Below, in pieces: positions 58,389 to 63,692 of a stretch of DNA of 64,000 bases. The notes beneath the pieces were generated by a model, which saw only the letters and a program-made list of their open reading frames with translations, was not told where the DNA came from and did not search any database. The stretch's first letter is position 1. Every line of letters starts with the position of its first letter. The position numbers were made by a program, and so were the translations under genes. This stretch comes from Gammaproteobacteria bacterium HGW-Gammaproteobacteria-15. GTDB lineage: Bacteria > Pseudomonadota > Gammaproteobacteria > Enterobacterales > Alteromonadaceae. The stretch spans positions 1 to 64,000 of the forward strand of contig PGZF01000005.1 of the NCBI GenBank assembly GCA_002840125.1, given 5' to 3'.

Positions 58389-61300
58389 CTACAAGCTGTT
58401 TAAAAACGCCAGCAAGGCCTCTCTGTCTGCGCCAGACAGGTTCTGGTAATTTACTCTGCTGATCTCTGCCTCACCGCCGTGCCAGCGGATCGCTTCGTCA
58501 ATAGTACGGGCGCGGCCATCGTGCAAATAGTTGCCGTCCGGCGTGCAGTATTCATGGCCATCCAGGCCAAAGGCGTCCCAGCCGGGGCTACCAGCTACAC
58601 CACCGGTAACACAGGCCGATAAGCCTAAGCCCCACAGCGGTGCAGTGCGCCACTCTGAGCCGCCGGCCTCACCTTCGGCTAAGTTGTCGGCCAGGCCGGG
58701 TCCCATATCATGCAGCAATAAATCGGTGTAGGGGTGTATCGTTTGATTACGCAGCTCTGCCAGCGGGTGATATTCGCTGGTTTGAAAACTCTCAATATGG
58801 CAGCCGTTACAACCGGTAGCATTAAAAACGGCTTTACCCTGCAGCACCTGCGGGTTGTTGTAATCACGCTGTGGCCGCACACCCAGTAATGAGATGTACT
58901 TTATCAGGTTATCCAGATGCTGATCCGCCAGCGGTGCACCACCGCCGCAATTACTCTGGCTGGCGCCGCAATCCGGTGTGGGTAATAGCGTAGTCATTAC
59001 GCCCATATCGTTATTGAGTGCCGCCGCTACCTGATGCCTTACGCTGACATTTGCCGCTTTATAACCAAAACGGCCTAAACGCGCTTCACCGGTAACAGGG
59101 TCAATCACGCGATGGGCGCGGCCGGAAATGCCATCGCCGTTGGCATCATCAATATCTTCCAGCGCTAATATGGCTGCTTCAGGTATCGCCTCCAGCAAGC
59201 CGATACCGTTTAACTGTGGCGCAATACGGGCCGAGAACGTATCAGGCACGGTGCCGCTGAATTGATAGTTGGCCGTGCGCAGGCCGTTACTTTCAGTAAA
59301 CGAAGCAATAGAGGGCATGCTTTCATTGCTGCTGGTGCCATTGCGCCGCGGCTGCAGTACCCTGCCTAATTCGGCGTGTGATAAACCCTCAGCATTACCC
59401 ACCCGAAATACCCATTTGTCCAGCGGCGTGCCAACAGCACCAACCGGTGCCCGGCCATTACGCACATGGCAGCCGGAGCAGCGCTGGTTAATATAGTTCG
59501 AACCGGCTAAACCTGTCATGCCGGCAAAAATACCGTTTTCGGCGTTTTCGTCATGGCTGCCATCAACAAAAGAGGTATGGTGCAAACGCCGCCCCAGTAC
59601 AAAAGGCTGACCATTGTCATAACCTAAATTGGTGGCCATTTGCTGAAAATGGCCGTCTGGCTCGGCGGTCATTTGTACATGCAAGGTGGTGTCGCCGCCT
59701 AAACGGGCACTGGCAGGCAGCGGCACAGAGTCACGCTGTAAATAGCGGCCGCTCTGGAAAATTTCTTTGTCGGTAACATCCCACGGCACTATGCCCTGGC
59801 CGACAATATATAAAAAGGTGGTGCCGTAATAGTTAGCCCGGCCACGCGGCAACGTGGACCCATCTAAAAACTGGCTGACTTCAAATTCCAGCTTATCACC
59901 TACCTGAATTGGCCGGCCTTCGCGGCAGTTATAGCTTTCTTCTTTCCAGTAATGGGTATTATCTACCATGTTCATTACACCATTACCGCAAAACTCGGCC
60001 AGCGTATTCATACCGATATACCACCAGCGGTTTTCTGCTTCGGTATCATGCAGTTTGTTTTGCGTCACCACATTCATACGAATACTGTTACCGCCTTTGG
60101 CGACGTAATCGACTATTTCAATGGCGGCAGTTCTGTCTTCCCAGTAAAACGTCAGGTAATGATCATAGGCCTGAAAATGGTTTTCTTTGGCATGTCTGTC
60201 ACGGGCGCGGTCAGAAAAACGGGTAACCAAGGCGTCACCGCGATCATACTGGATGGCGCTCTCCAGCGCGGTAGCGGCATTATACAGCGGCACGACATTA
60301 AGTGCTGCTAGCGGGCAGCCATTAGCATTGACCGGCGTACCGGCCGGTGTGCCGGGGCAATTATCCAGCGCATCAGGCACTCCGTCGCTGTCCTGGTCGG
60401 GATCAGGGTTTGGCCCGCCCGGGTCCGGGTTAGTACCACCGCCATTACCACTTAGGGTAAAGCTTTGCTGTGCCGTATCAATGGCATAGCCGTTTGCAGT
60501 ATCCCAGTAGGTAAAAAAGTAGGTCAGCACAGTGCCGGCTGCTAAACCCGATACCTGGTAGCTGTTTACCCCACTTGCCTGCTGCATGGCGACATTAATC
60601 TGGCCGCCGTTATTCACGCGGTAATGCACATCAGCCCAACTACTGCTGTTAACAAAAAACCGCACACTGTCAGCACCGGTTTGCGCCACACCAAAAGCGC
60701 CGCCGGCGGTTGGACAACCATTGCTGTCCACAGCGCTACCGGGCGCGGTATTGGCACATTGATCGAGGTTGTCAGGTACACCATCGCCATCGCTGTCGGC
60801 CAATGCTGTGCCACCGCCGCCGTGCCAGACAATATCATCAATCGCAAATTCAAAGCTGTTGGTGGGCAGTTGGCCATCGATACTGGCAATATAAAACATG
60901 CCGGTTAACGCCTGCAGTGCAATGAGCTCGCCACGCAAATCGGCTACCGGAATGCTGACTTCGCTCCAGTCTCCGTTACGCACCAAACCATAGCGGCTTT
61001 CATTGGCCGGGAAATTCAGCCAGTTCTCATTAGTGTAGGAGTCGGCAATGCCAATTTTAAAGCCGACATTAGCCGGAATTTTGATACTGAACGTCATAAT
61101 GCCGCTGGCAAAGTTGCTCATATCGCGTACCTGGCGGGTTTGAATGCCGCCACCAAACCATTGCCCCGGGCTGATATAGTTCCAGGCAATAACATTGCTG
61201 CCTTCCAGTGGTGCGGTGTTGCCCGCCACTACTGATGCCTGATTCCAGATATAAATATCTGAACTTACGCCGGCCTGCAGCTGGTTGGTTGTCGGCGTGG

Positions 61301-62318
61301 TATCGGTAAAAACGCCAAAGCTGCCACTTTCCGGCGGGTTAACATTACCGCTAAATACCTGCCCCATACCGTTTAACTGGTACACCCGCACATAATCGAT
61401 ATACATTTTTGCCGGCAAGGGTGCGGTTACCTGGGCATTGGTGGCAGCGTCAGTAAAGTTGCCGCCTACCGCCATATTAAACAGCAGGTAGAAAGGTTGT
61501 TGTAGTTCGCTGGATTCTTCAGTAATGCTGATCGGCGCATCGTACATATCGTACTCCACGCCGTTATCTATGACAGTAAAACGCAGCTGGCTGTCTGTCC
61601 AGTAAGTGCGGTAGATTACAAAGCGGTTGCTCAGTGGCTGGGCCGCGACATAAGCGTTGTCGGTTTGCCAGGCTGTCATGGCGGCACAGGTTGGGTTTTC
61701 CGGTACGCAGGCCGCATCAGCATAAAAAATCGCATTAGCACCGACATAGCTGTTGATATCCGCGCCGGGGTGGCCGGCCTCGCTCCGGCCCTGAGCACTG
61801 TGGCCCATTTCCATCATGTCAATTTCGCCCTTAGCCGGCCAGCTGGCGGTACTGGTGCCCAGCATCCAGGCAGCAGGCCATAAGCCGGTGGCCAAATCCG
61901 GCACCCGCACACGCACCTCAATCATGCCGTACTGCACTGCCAGTTTCTGCTCACTGTCAATTTTGCCCGAGCTAAAAGCACGCCCGCCAATGGCGTCATT
62001 TCTGGCTTGCAATACCAGCGCTTTATTACCCGGCTCGCCCGGCACATCTTCAATGCTCAGGTTGTCGGCGCTATACCATTGCAACTCCTGATTGCCCCAG
62101 CCACATAAACCTACCTGGCAACCATCGCCTTCTATTTCATTCCATGTGGCCGTATTAAAGGTGTTGAAGTTGTCCTCAAACAACAGGTTACCAATAACAG
62201 GGTTAGTAACATCTGCCAGTGCTGTGTGCGGCGCACCAAGGCAGCAAAGTGCCAGCAAAGTGGAAAAAGACGGCCATAGCGTGGAACGCTGTGCCGCAGT
62301 GTTTTTACTATTTTTCAT
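58389..62318 (-). CDS. Secreted multidomain GH16 beta-1,3-glucanase fused to a di-heme oxidoreductase
   Basis: 1,309 residues from ATG 62318. Order: signal peptide (~1-36); GH16 laminarinase (~39-314) with catalytic Glu165, Asp167, Glu170 (GEIDMMEMG); a CBM-like beta domain (~333-498); a Ca-binding thrombospondin-3-type repeat (SDGDGVPDNLDQC); a CBM56-like glucan-binding module (~539-623); a Pro/Asp linker with a second such repeat (DSDGVPDALDNC, ~643-670); ~230 unrecognised beta-rich residues; and a DHOR (DUF1111) domain with heme motifs CSGCH (947-951) and CNGCH (1170-1174). It should bind and cut laminarin while carrying two c-type hemes. The frame is unbroken. Di-heme function here is inference. 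Confidence 0.9.
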   Translation of the reverse strand: MKNSKNTAAQRSTLWPSFSTLLALCCLGAPHTALADVTNPVIGNLLFEDNFNTFNTATWNEIEGDGCQVGLCGWGNQELQWYSADNLSIEDVPGEPGNKALVLQARNDAIGGRAFSSGKIDSEQKLAVQYGMIEVRVRVPDLATGLWPAAWMLGTSTASWPAKGEIDMMEMGHSAQGRSEAGHPGADINSYVGANAIFYADAACVPENPTCAAMTAWQTDNAYVAAQPLSNRFVIYRTYWTDSQLRFTVIDNGVEYDMYDAPISITEESSELQQPFYLLFNMAVGGNFTDAATNAQVTAPLPAKMYIDYVRVYQLNGMGQVFSGNVNPPESGSFGVFTDTTPTTNQLQAGVSSDIYIWNQASVVAGNTAPLEGSNVIAWNYISPGQWFGGGIQTRQVRDMSNFASGIMTFSIKIPANVGFKIGIADSYTNENWLNFPANESRYGLVRNGDWSEVSIPVADLRGELIALQALTGMFYIASIDGQLPTNSFEFAIDDIVWHGGGGTALADSDGDGVPDNLDQCANTAPGSAVDSNGCPTAGGAFGVAQTGADSVRFFVNSSSWADVHYRVNNGGQINVAMQQASGVNSYQVSGLAAGTVLTYFFTYWDTANGYAIDTAQQSFTLSGNGGGTNPDPGGPNPDPDQDSDGVPDALDNCPGTPAGTPVNANGCPLAALNVVPLYNAATALESAIQYDRGDALVTRFSDRARDRHAKENHFQAYDHYLTFYWEDRTAAIEIVDYVAKGGNSIRMNVVTQNKLHDTEAENRWWYIGMNTLAEFCGNGVMNMVDNTHYWKEESYNCREGRPIQVGDKLEFEVSQFLDGSTLPRGRANYYGTTFLYIVGQGIVPWDVTDKEIFQSGRYLQRDSVPLPASARLGGDTTLHVQMTAEPDGHFQQMATNLGYDNGQPFVLGRRLHHTSFVDGSHDENAENGIFAGMTGLAGSNYINQRCSGCHVRNGRAPVGAVGTPLDKWVFRVGNAEGLSHAELGRVLQPRRNGTSSNESMPSIASFTESNGLRTANYQFSGTVPDTFSARIAPQLNGIGLLEAIPEAAILALEDIDDANGDGISGRAHRVIDPVTGEARLGRFGYKAANVSVRHQVAAALNNDMGVMTTLLPTPDCGASQSNCGGGAPLADQHLDNLIKYISLLGVRPQRDYNNPQVLQGKAVFNATGCNGCHIESFQTSEYHPLAELRNQTIHPYTDLLLHDMGPGLADNLAEGEAGGSEWRTAPLWGLGLSACVTGGVAGSPGWDAFGLDGHEYCTPDGNYLHDGRARTIDEAIRWHGGEAEISRVNYQNLSGADREALLAFLNSL

Positions 62319-62324
62319 GTGCAA

Positions 62325-62709: not shown

Positions 62710-63348
62710 TTACTTTTGCCTGGCCAGCTGATTGGCAAAATCATGGTTGACATCACGGTGCCCGGCTTCATCTGCCCGCACGGCAATAACCACATCACGC
62801 AGCCGGGCATCAGCCGGTAATTGCCAGTACTCTATGGCCACTTGCGGCGCAGCAATATTTCCTATGGCACCGCTTTCTATCTCGGCCAGATAACAGCTGT
62901 AACTGTATACTGCCTCTTCTTCAAAATAGCCCACCAGGCGATGTGCGGTTTTTGCCGACAGTAAATACAGCAGCAAAAAGCCGGTAAAAAACACGCCCTG
63001 TGCTAACAGGATCAGCATGCGCTCAAACCAGTTCGGTTTGGCAATTTCAATAAAGGTCATCAGATGCATGCGTTCGTTCTCTGCTTCGTCCAGCAACACC
63101 CGGATCCAGCCATGATCATCTTCCATCCGGCGCAAACTGCGCATATGCCGTAACATCCCTGCCACCATGCCCGGCACGCCGGCTACGGTTTCCAGAATAA
63201 CAGCGCGATGGCCATAACGCTTGGCAAAGAAGGTGTCGGCACAGAAGCGCAGCATTTTGGTTAAACGAAAAGCGATACGATCAGATACATTTTGCGGTTT
63301 ATGGTGTGCAGCTAAAGGATCAGACGGGTTAAGCTGGTCTTCAGACAT
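62710..63348 (-). CDS. aox: Alternative (cyanide-insensitive) ubiquinol oxidase
   Basis: 212 residues from ATG 63348, preferred because AGGAGG lies 5 nt upstream. All six di-iron ligands of AOX are present: Glu53 (LETVAGVPG), Glu92 and His95 (NERMH), Glu in the FEEEA motif (~143-145), Glu194 and His197 (ADEAGH). The last motif is usually ADEAHH; only the non-ligand His is Gly. Two amphipathic hydrophobic stretches anchor it at the inner membrane. AOX passes electrons from ubiquinol to oxygen without proton pumping and resists cyanide and nitric oxide. Bacterial copies are uncommon; in Vibrio fischeri AOX is induced by NO. It stands alone here. Confidence 0.92.
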
Positions 63349-63692
63349 CAGTACCTCCTGTTGCGATATGGCCAGGAAGTATAGCAGCGGCAACTGAACC
63401 TTTACTGAGCGCTAAACCACTGCCAAACACACCAAAGTCTGTTGTTTATTTTCATTAACATTTAAGCACTGTCACAGCTTATGGCCTGCTGTCTCACGTT
63501 CATTCATCACTGCTGCTTCGTCAGGCTTCTTTACATCCGGTTTGCCAAACACATGCACTTTCTGCCAGGCGAATTTTAGTAATGAACAGCCATACAGGTC
63601 GCCGCATTTTTTATAATAATGGCTCTCTTCTTGCTTATATAAAGGTTGTGCGGATAAACAATATTTTGTATTTAAATAAATAGGGATTATTT
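63349..63692. other. Intergenic region between aox and the last gene
   Basis: About 344 bp holding both divergent promoters. On the minus strand a frame ends at 63472 and stays open to 63690 with fairly coding-like content (KKCGDLYGCSLLKFAWQ), but it has no ATG, GTG or TTG in its first two-thirds and crosses the AT-rich promoter. It may be a decayed gene remnant. No NO-responsive (NsrR) site is convincing by eye. Confidence 0.4.

What the first reader, a model, noticed from the sequence alone, without database searches (positions are those of the whole stretch)
58389..62318. Single polypeptide joining a laminarinase, glucan-binding modules and a di-heme oxidoreductase
GH16 with intact ExDxxE, two carbohydrate-binding-like regions, two calcium-type repeats and a C-terminal DHOR (DUF1111) domain with two CxxCH motifs lie in one unbroken frame. 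Glycoside hydrolases act by simple hydrolysis and need no redox partner, so tethering one to a c-type cytochrome suggests either oxidative processing of beta-1,3-glucan products, electron transfer to an extracellular partner, or protection from peroxide at the polysaccharide surface. About 230 residues before the DHOR domain match nothing I recognise. DHOR proteins have poorly known roles.
Basis: partly seen in the sequence, partly recalled or inferred. Interest (0 to 1): 0.78.

Follow-up and report, generated by a model that had tools for sequence, protein, structure and literature searches.

The report
Laminarinase fused to di-heme oxidoreductase
A bacterial enzyme that looks made to cut the algal sugar polymer laminarin is built in one piece with a heme-based redox unit, and relatives of that redox unit are repeatedly attached to, or encoded beside, glucan-cutting and glucan-binding parts, which hints at an unexplored oxidative way of attacking polysaccharides.

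Summary
One 1311-codon frame (58389-62324, minus; ATG at 62318) encodes a signal peptide, a GH16 laminarinase with intact ExDxxE, an unassigned region, a TSP3 repeat, CBM56, a second TSP3 repeat and a di-heme DHOR module with two CxxCH motifs. It is no assembly joint: 9 of 31 genomes of the genus (own included) hold the same open fusion. The "unknown 230 residues" are a conserved ~187-residue N-terminal domain plus the diverged first part of DHOR. Together they form a ~636-residue "long-form DHOR" (AlphaFold2 pLDDT 91, pTM 0.93) that elsewhere stands alone as a probable lipoprotein. Recognised carbohydrate modules (GH16, GH81, CBM56, CBM6/35, CBM32, ricin-type) sit on 70 of 90 long-form rows and 0 of 23 short DHOR rows. 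Of 44 main-clade relatives without a fused hydrolase, 16 have a GH16 gene nearby, against 0 of 23 short forms. The kind was printed twice with its redox role untested: Saccharophagus Lam16A (2008) and 1,3-xylanase Xyn65 (2022). Best reading: a CBM-targeted di-heme enzyme of the CCP/MauG superfamily doing oxidative chemistry at beta-1,3-linked polysaccharide, working like rubber oxygenase RoxA. The association is well supported; the chemistry is inferred.

The parts
58389..62324 (-). whole gene, 1311 aa (TTG at 62324; likely ATG start at 62318)
   Evidence: same frame in 9 of 31 genomes of the genus, own included
62214..62324 (-). signal peptide region (residues 1-37, read by eye: hydrophobic stretch then ALA|D; no lipobox seen)
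   Evidence: sequence; no signal-peptide program was run
61377..62189 (-). GH16 laminarinase domain (residues 46-316); catalytic EIDMME at residues 167-172 (61809-61826)
   Evidence: no Pfam hit at E<=5; best PDB sequence hit 0.97; residues 319-509 are 75-95% identical in 8 congeners
60705..60797 (-). TSP3-type calcium repeat 1 (about residues 510-540)
   Evidence: two TSP_3 stretches; borders by eye
60474..60692 (-). CBM56 (residues 545-617)
   Evidence: E 6e-23; also matches chains of solved beta-1,3-glucanases
60300..60404 (-). TSP3-type calcium repeat 2 (about residues 641-675)
   Evidence: best stretch 641-660; end by eye
59739..60299 (-). N-terminal domain of the long-form DHOR module (residues 676-862), largely beta; invariant R710, H711, Y727, R731, D739, E813
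   Evidence: no Pfam hit for residues 676-875
58392..59738 (-). DHOR domain (residues 863-1311); Pfam stretch 1031-1311, the rest by profile-profile alignment with short DHOR
59553..59579 (-). long-form-specific invariant His916 and His924 just before heme 1
   Evidence: 69 of 69 long-form rows; other residues or a gap at these places in the short-DHOR profile
59466..59480 (-). heme c site 1, CSGCH (residues 949-953)
   Evidence: Cys949 and His953 in 69 of 69 rows
58797..58811 (-). heme c site 2, CNGCH (residues 1172-1176)
   Evidence: His1176 in 69 of 69 rows
58479..58481 (-). His1282 of HDGRARTIDEAIRWH, predicted sixth ligand of heme 2 (place of Tyr294 in MauG, Met or His in CCPs)
   Evidence: the WH of this motif in 113 of 113 DHOR rows; ligand rule from PMC7567364 passages

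Best explanation
The protein is probably a secreted bifunctional enzyme. The CBM56 (and perhaps region 325-500) holds it on beta-1,3-glucan, the GH16 domain hydrolyses the chain, and the C-terminal long-form DHOR, a di-heme c enzyme of the CCP/MauG superfamily, performs oxidative chemistry on the same polysaccharide or its immediate coat, using O2 or H2O2 at the N-terminal heme (His953 proximal). The C-terminal heme (His1176, predicted bis-His with His1282) acts as electron store or relay. It would work like the rubber oxygenase RoxA: extracellular, about 70 kDa, di-heme, bis-His C-terminal heme, acting on a polymer. Shown: fusion, domain content, conservation, recurrent association with beta-1,3-glucanases and CBMs, superfamily membership of the C-terminal heme domain. 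Inferred: secretion, heme loading, ligand of heme 2, substrate, oxidant and product.
For: Recurrent coupling. The DHORs nearest to the window's outside the genus (72-73% identical) carry GH81 instead of GH16. L077 and L103 carry a GH16 only 26-27% identical to the window's on DHOR cores 62% identical to it. CBM-only DHORs exist, e.g. CBM56-DHOR in Archangium and Corallococcus. Recognised GH/CBM/lectin modules: 70 of 90 long-form rows against 0 of 23 short DHOR rows; fewest changes on the quick tree (gain and loss not told apart): GH16 4, GH81 1, CBM56 5, CBM6/35 9, CBM32 4. GH16/GH81 matches in the flanks of 16 of 44 main-clade rows without a fused GH, 0 of 23 short and 0 of 26 CBM32-clade rows (Fisher 5e-4 and 2e-4). 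In L083 and L086 a GH16 gene stands about 220 and 200 bp before a CBM6-CBM6-DHOR gene. Evenly drawn class sample: 4 of 4 long-form matches among 369 genomes carry such modules. Both hemes and many other charged and aromatic residues are invariant in 69 rows, which argues for catalysis rather than a mere scaffold. CCP/MauG kinship: hhalign 97.3%, E 2.4e-11; hydrazine synthase (5c2v_C) is the only Foldseek hit under 0.001 with either model. RoxA precedent: PMC6797691 passages.
Against: No activity was measured here or found in print. RoxA was not among the 50 Foldseek rows shown for either model, nor among sequence hits, so RoxA is an analogy, not kin. The MauG and CcP rows seen with the weaker model (8.5e-3 and 0.17) are not among the 50 rows for the better model. 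RoxA lacks acid-base residues near its active heme (PMC6797691), whereas this family has invariant His, Arg and Glu shortly before heme 1, which could fit a peroxidase better. Xyn65 purified from E. coli worked as a plain 1,3-xylanase (PMC9638140); the section read (22) does not say whether heme was loaded. The genome has an unlinked AA10 LPMO, so an oxidative route may exist elsewhere. 20 of 90 long-form rows have no recognised carbohydrate module, and in the CBM32 clade no GH16 was found in the flanks (0 of 26), so beta-1,3-glucan need not be the target of all.
Confidence: 0.4

Rival explanations
1. Local peroxidase shield: the DHOR module removes H2O2 at the algal or fungal surface and so protects the glucanase and the cell.
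For: CCP/MauG kinship; DHOR is described as putative peroxidase (Pfam) and DUF1111 as di-heme peroxidases in PMC3143127 (passages); invariant His, Arg and Glu shortly before heme 1.
Against: An outer, CBM-tethered peroxidase has no obvious electron donor (inference); short DHOR rows, the better candidates for such a role, carry no recognised CBM (0 of 23); tethering to glucan is not needed for scavenging.
Confidence: 0.2
2. Sugar-end oxidation: the DHOR module oxidises reducing ends or hydroxyls of released laminari-oligosaccharides to aldonic or keto products.
For: The glucanase makes reducing ends next to the redox module; GH16 and GH81 and in print GH26 fusions would all make short beta-1,3 oligosaccharides.
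Against: CBM-only and stand-alone forms exist; I recall no sugar-oxidising enzyme of this superfamily.
Confidence: 0.15
3. Electron relay: the di-heme module passes electrons between a surface partner (LPMO, outer-membrane cytochrome, phenolics) and the polysaccharide without own catalysis.
For: Di-heme c content; predicted bis-His heme 2; an AA10 LPMO exists in the genome.
Against: The LPMO lies about 400 kb away on the same contig (C9:459824); invariant residues are spread over the N-terminal domain and both heme parts, more than a relay seems to need.
Confidence: 0.15
4. Non-redox use: the DHOR fold serves as a binding or stabilising module.
For: Raised as one option by the Xyn65 authors (PMC9638140, passages).
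Against: Both heme sites, His1282 and many polar residues are strictly kept.
Confidence: 0.1

Closest known systems
Saccharophagus degradans Lam16A (Sde_1393)
   Same: GH16 laminarinase with CBMs, TSP3 repeats and a C-terminal COG3488 (thiol-oxidoreductase like) domain (PMC2386152 Table 3; PMC3124978 Table 6 lists CBM6 x2 and CBM56). That COG3488 corresponds to DHOR is recalled, not tested
   Different: Lam16A has two CBM6 and four TSP3; the window protein has one CBM56, two TSP3 and the unassigned 325-500 region. No function is given for COG3488 in the passages seen
Xyn65 of Gilvimarinus xylanilyticus
   Same: Secreted endo-hydrolase of a beta-1,3-linked polysaccharide with CBMs and DHOR (GH26-CBM31-CBM6-Big-DHOR), PMC9638140
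   Different: GH26 1,3-xylanase; only hydrolysis is reported in the sections seen; its authors write that DHOR had not been found in GHs
Short DHOR / DUF1111 proteins (imelysin-associated, PMC3143127 passages)
   Same: Same C-terminal ~450 residues, both CxxCH, EAILWHGGEA tail
   Different: 462-532 aa in the frames read, lack the 187-residue N-terminal domain, His916 and His924, and carry no recognised carbohydrate module
RoxA rubber oxygenase
   Same: Secreted ~70 kDa di-heme protein related to CCPs, bis-His C-terminal heme, attacks a polymer (PMC6797691 passages)
   Different: No sequence hit or listed structural hit here; hydrophobic distal pocket without acid-base residues; CBM or hydrolase domains not mentioned in the passages seen
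CCP/MauG and hydrazine synthase gamma
   Same: C-terminal heme domain aligns (97.3%, E 2.4e-11; Foldseek E 1.1e-4 to 5c2v_C), HDG motif followed by the ligand position
   Different: His where MauG has Tyr; extra N-terminal domain; fusion to carbohydrate modules

Membership tests
GH16 endo-beta-1,3-glucanase (laminarinase) | GH16 domain with ExDxxE | tested here: met
   Pfam 7.9e-6, PDB laminarinases 2.4e-29, EIDMME 167-172
GH16 endo-beta-1,3-glucanase (laminarinase) | hydrolysis of laminarin | not testable with these tools
   needs assay
CBM56 | profile match | tested here: met
   81.3 bits against a cut-off of 27
DHOR (PF06537) | profile match above cut-off and two CxxCH | tested here: met
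   210.5 bits against 22; CxxCH 949, 1172
DHOR (PF06537) | covalent heme and redox activity | not testable with these tools
   no experiment
short DHOR / DUF1111 | single ~460-530 aa domain without N-terminal domain or CBM | tested here: not met
   extra domain 676-862 and modules
CCP/MauG superfamily | homologous C-terminal heme domain | tested here: met
   hhalign 97.3%, 2.4e-11; Foldseek 5c2v_C 1.1e-4; MauG 8.5e-3 with the weaker model only, not among the 50 rows
CCP/MauG superfamily | homologous N-terminal heme domain | tested here: inconclusive
   hhalign aligned only the C-terminal heme domain
MauG | axial Tyr of heme 2 | tested here: not met
   His at that place in 113 of 113 rows, by sequence alignment only
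RoxA/RoxB rubber oxygenases | sequence or fold match | tested here: not met
   no hit (E<=10) and not in the 50 rows shown
Lam16A-type GH-CBM-COG3488 fusions | GH, CBM, TSP3 and DHOR in one chain | tested here: met
   against PMC2386152 Table 3; Lam16A itself was not aligned here
LPMO (works-like only) | LPMO domain | tested here: not met
   no LPMO domain in the Pfam scan; heme-c motifs instead

The most novel reading that the evidence does not exclude
Long-form DHOR is a new class of polysaccharide-active redox enzyme: a CBM-targeted, heme-c based analogue of LPMOs that oxidatively attacks beta-1,3-linked glucans and xylans. It has its own N-terminal domain and residues (Arg710-His711, His916, His924, Glu926) that the short DHORs lack, and has been joined on several lines to GH16 and GH81 (and, in print, GH26) enzymes.
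Probability: 0.3. Interest if true: 0.92.

Novelty: new variant of a known kind. Interest (0 to 1): 0.7.

Why it matters
Oxidative polysaccharide cleavage is known to me mainly from copper LPMOs, and I recall no bacterial oxidative enzyme for beta-1,3-glucan, a major storage glucan of marine algae (both recalled, not searched). A CBM-borne di-heme family found in marine Gammaproteobacteria, Planctomycetes, Verrucomicrobia and myxobacteria would be a direct candidate, and the fusion names the substrate to test. It would also give the poorly understood DHOR/DUF1111 family a concrete substrate lead.

Tried and rejected
Assembly or frameshift joint: rejected, same open frame in 9 of 31 genomes of the genus, own included. 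Operon partners as explanation: an alternative-oxidase-like gene stands upstream in 6 of 9 loci of the genus (one a shortened frame) and the PepSY gene downstream in 4 of 9, by reading (only the window's copies were scanned by Pfam), so neither looks obligatory. Region 325-500: no Pfam hit at E<=5, best PDB hit 0.97; left unassigned. N-terminal domain 676-862: no Pfam hit, no Foldseek hit that I trust. VIA-align library not on the machine. Literature: laminarinase + di-heme + GH16 gave 0 papers; COG3488 gave 3; six DHOR terms gave 2.

Weak points of the counts: rows are not independent; 19 of the 90 long-form rows are from the window's genus (9 GH16 type, window included, and 10 CBM32 type). 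Before the tree I dropped 7 fragments or odd rows (L121, L124, L130, L135, L145, L152, L156) and 5 duplicates (L102, L107, L133, L143, L147); L129, L132 and L150 gave no usable frame. Modules were labelled by BLAST against modules cut from Pfam-scanned members; 47 DHOR proteins were scanned by Pfam itself. In the flank test the query set included GH16 genes of L072 and L076, themselves two of the 16 positives, and a GH3 of L076; flank lengths differ with the contigs. The tree is a quick one, and two joins of long branches were flagged (L141, L151). In the class sample I fetched 5 short-DHOR loci; one of them (L203) was not caught by my frame filter and was not read.
Full report
What is there. 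Pfam finds GH16, CBM56, TSP_3 and DHOR; solved laminarinases match the GH16 part down to 2.4e-29. The catalytic EIDMME lies at residues 167-172 and the two CxxCH at 949 and 1172. The signal peptide was read by eye only.

Not an artefact. The genome is held as 10 contigs, listed as 100% complete and 0% contaminated. Nine of 31 genomes of the genus, the window's included, hold the same fusion as an unbroken frame of 1302-1320 aa. In the eight others the GH16 part is 87-99% and the DHOR parts 78-99% identical to the window's. The genus is Rheinheimera by inference: contigs of two unnamed congeners have the lengths of named records L143 (R. aquimaris, 707885) and L147 (R. oceanensis, 754444).

What the unknown 230 residues are. 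Profile-profile alignment of the last 636 residues with short DHORs starts at residue 863 (E 5e-118). So 863-1030 is diverged DHOR, and only 676-862 is extra. In the 69 long-form rows aligned this extra part has invariant residues, and it folds together with DHOR at high confidence (pLDDT 91.3, pTM 0.93). In L082, L084, L085 and L088 the module is nearly the whole protein (716-753 aa, with an LSAC or LSSC lipobox read by eye). No Pfam or NCBIfam model named the extra domain in the proteins scanned. No chain of the Protein Data Bank covers the module by sequence: at E<=10 there were 9 hits, all to short stretches, mostly cytochrome c types.

Where the module occurs. In the family sample 60 of 196 genomes had some match, short DHORs included. 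In an evenly drawn class sample 38 of 369 genomes had a match at 1e-30; four matches start before position 190 of the model, that is, are long form: the window's two, L201 and L202. All four carry carbohydrate modules; L201 is GH16-CBM6-CBM56-F5/8C-DHOR with TSP3 repeats. Of five short-DHOR loci fetched from that sample, four were read by eye: L198, L200 and L204 have extensions that look like spurious upstream translation, and L199 is a divergent form; L203 was not read. The collection of named genomes adds, by record title, Pseudoalteromonas, Paraglaciecola, Colwellia, Microbulbifer, Gilvimarinus, Teredinibacter, Catenovulum, Planctomycetes, Verrucomicrobia, Fibrobacteres, Archangium, Corallococcus and Massilia-like bacteria.

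What it is joined to. Forty-seven DHOR proteins were scanned by Pfam. N-side partners are GH16, GH81 with CBM56, CBM6/35, CBM32 (F5/8C), CBM56, ricin-type lectin, Lipoprotein_15, Ig-like and fn3 domains; a few (L082, L085, L098, L108, L116, L117) show none. With modules transferred by BLAST, 70 of 90 long-form rows carry a GH, CBM or lectin, against 0 of 23 short rows; the quick tree needs at least 4 changes for GH16, 1 for GH81, 5 for CBM56, 9 for CBM6/35 and 4 for CBM32, gain and loss not told apart. The DHORs closest to the window's outside the genus (72-73% identical) carry GH81, an unrelated family, while L077 and L103 carry a GH16 26-27% identical to the window's; that of L103 is nearest to other laminarinases than the window's. 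So the hydrolase changes while the redox module stays.

Neighbour genes. Among 44 main-clade rows without a fused GH, 16 have a GH16 or GH81 match in the flanks; among 18 GH-fused rows 0, CBM32-clade rows 0 of 26, short rows 0 of 23 (Fisher 5e-4 against short, 2e-4 against the CBM32 clade; rows are related, and two of the positives were also queries). In L083 a GH16-CBM6-CBM56 gene lies about 220 bp before a CBM6-CBM6-DHOR gene on the same strand, and L086 has the like at 200 bp (GH16 by BLAST); L076 has GH16 genes and a GH3 gene around. Fused and split states of the same pair are good evidence for a common function.

How the heme unit is built. The tail HDGRARTIDEAIRWH aligns with the HDG motif of CcPs and hydrazine synthase gamma. 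Its last His falls, by eye, where CCP_MauG proteins of related genomes mostly have Tyr, once Met (L178), twice His (L189, L192) and once neither (L181), and the profile alignment puts WH opposite the FY of that family. PMC7567364 (passages) states that this ligand is Tyr294 in MauG and Met or His in CCPs. The WH is kept in 113 of 113 rows. I therefore predict a bis-His heme 2, as reported for the C-terminal heme of RoxA (PMC6797691, passages). Before heme 1 the long form has invariant His916 and His924 (core 241 and 249; 69 of 69), in places where the short-DHOR profile has other residues or a gap, plus Arg710-His711 in the extra domain. Distances could not be measured.

What it most likely does. 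A hydrolase gains nothing obvious from a heme; a heme enzyme that must meet insoluble beta-1,3-glucan gains from a CBM or from a glucanase that already sits there. The strict conservation of the heme sites and the CBM-only versions argue that the redox unit acts at the polysaccharide. A secreted di-heme enzyme of this superfamily that attacks a polymer exists (RoxA). Against this, RoxA is no detectable kin, its pocket is hydrophobic, and nothing has been measured. I put oxidative attack on glucan or its coat at 0.4, peroxide shield 0.2, sugar-end oxidation 0.15, relay 0.15, scaffold 0.1.

What is already in print. PMC2386152 (passages) lists Lam16A of S. degradans as GH16/CBM6/CBM6/TSP3 x4/COG3488 in 2008; PMC3124978 (passages) adds CBM56 and does not contain the word COG3488. 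PMC9638140 (abstract, outline, section 22 and passages) describes Xyn65, GH26-CBM31-CBM6-Big-DHOR, reports its hydrolysis, and guesses either an oxidoreductase activity or a binding or stabilising role. PMC7567364, PMC3143127, PMC6797691 and PMC4496055 were seen as passages; other papers only as listings. The searches showed me no study of the redox activity and no description of the long-form family in the held library, which lacks most subscription journals.

Verdict. Observation confirmed. The architecture is a further case of a rarely noticed kind; the long-form DHOR behind it is an uncharacterised variant of the DHOR/CCP superfamily with a clear substrate lead. Interest 0.7.

Noticed in passing
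window 62710-63393 (-): Alternative oxidase (PF01786, 4.5e-87) directly upstream of the fusion, same strand; a like gene stands next to it in 6 of 9 loci of the genus (one a shortened frame, by eye).
   Followed up: partly
G000:C5:282927-284501 (L034 5925-8921, -): Second long-form DHOR of the same genome, an apparent lipoprotein with one F5/8C (CBM32) domain; its clade (26 rows) has no GH16 match in the flanks, so its substrate may differ.
   Followed up: partly
L068-L072, L074-L078, L100, L103, L109-L112, L114 and others, N-side of DHOR: Lipoprotein_15 (PF03640, secreted repeat of unknown function) is joined to 26 of 90 long-form DHORs; a possible functional partner of the heme module.
   Followed up: no
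L117, L118, L120, L123, L125, L127, N-side of DHOR: Stretches before the core with no recognised module or only fn3 (L117, L118, L125, L127 scanned by Pfam, L125 with a CBM_4_9 match below cut-off; L120 and L123 by BLAST only); they may hold undescribed carbohydrate-binding modules.
   Followed up: no
L119, L131: CBM56-DHOR without a hydrolase in the myxobacteria Archangium and Corallococcus, perhaps aimed at fungal cell-wall glucan.
   Followed up: no
L199 1466-3919 (+): Divergent DHOR-like protein with a long N-terminal half of unknown kind and heme sites at 514 and 712; not matched to any class here.
   Followed up: no
window 60825-61352 (-): Conserved region after GH16, by eye also in L201, that no Pfam model recognises.
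   Followed up: partly
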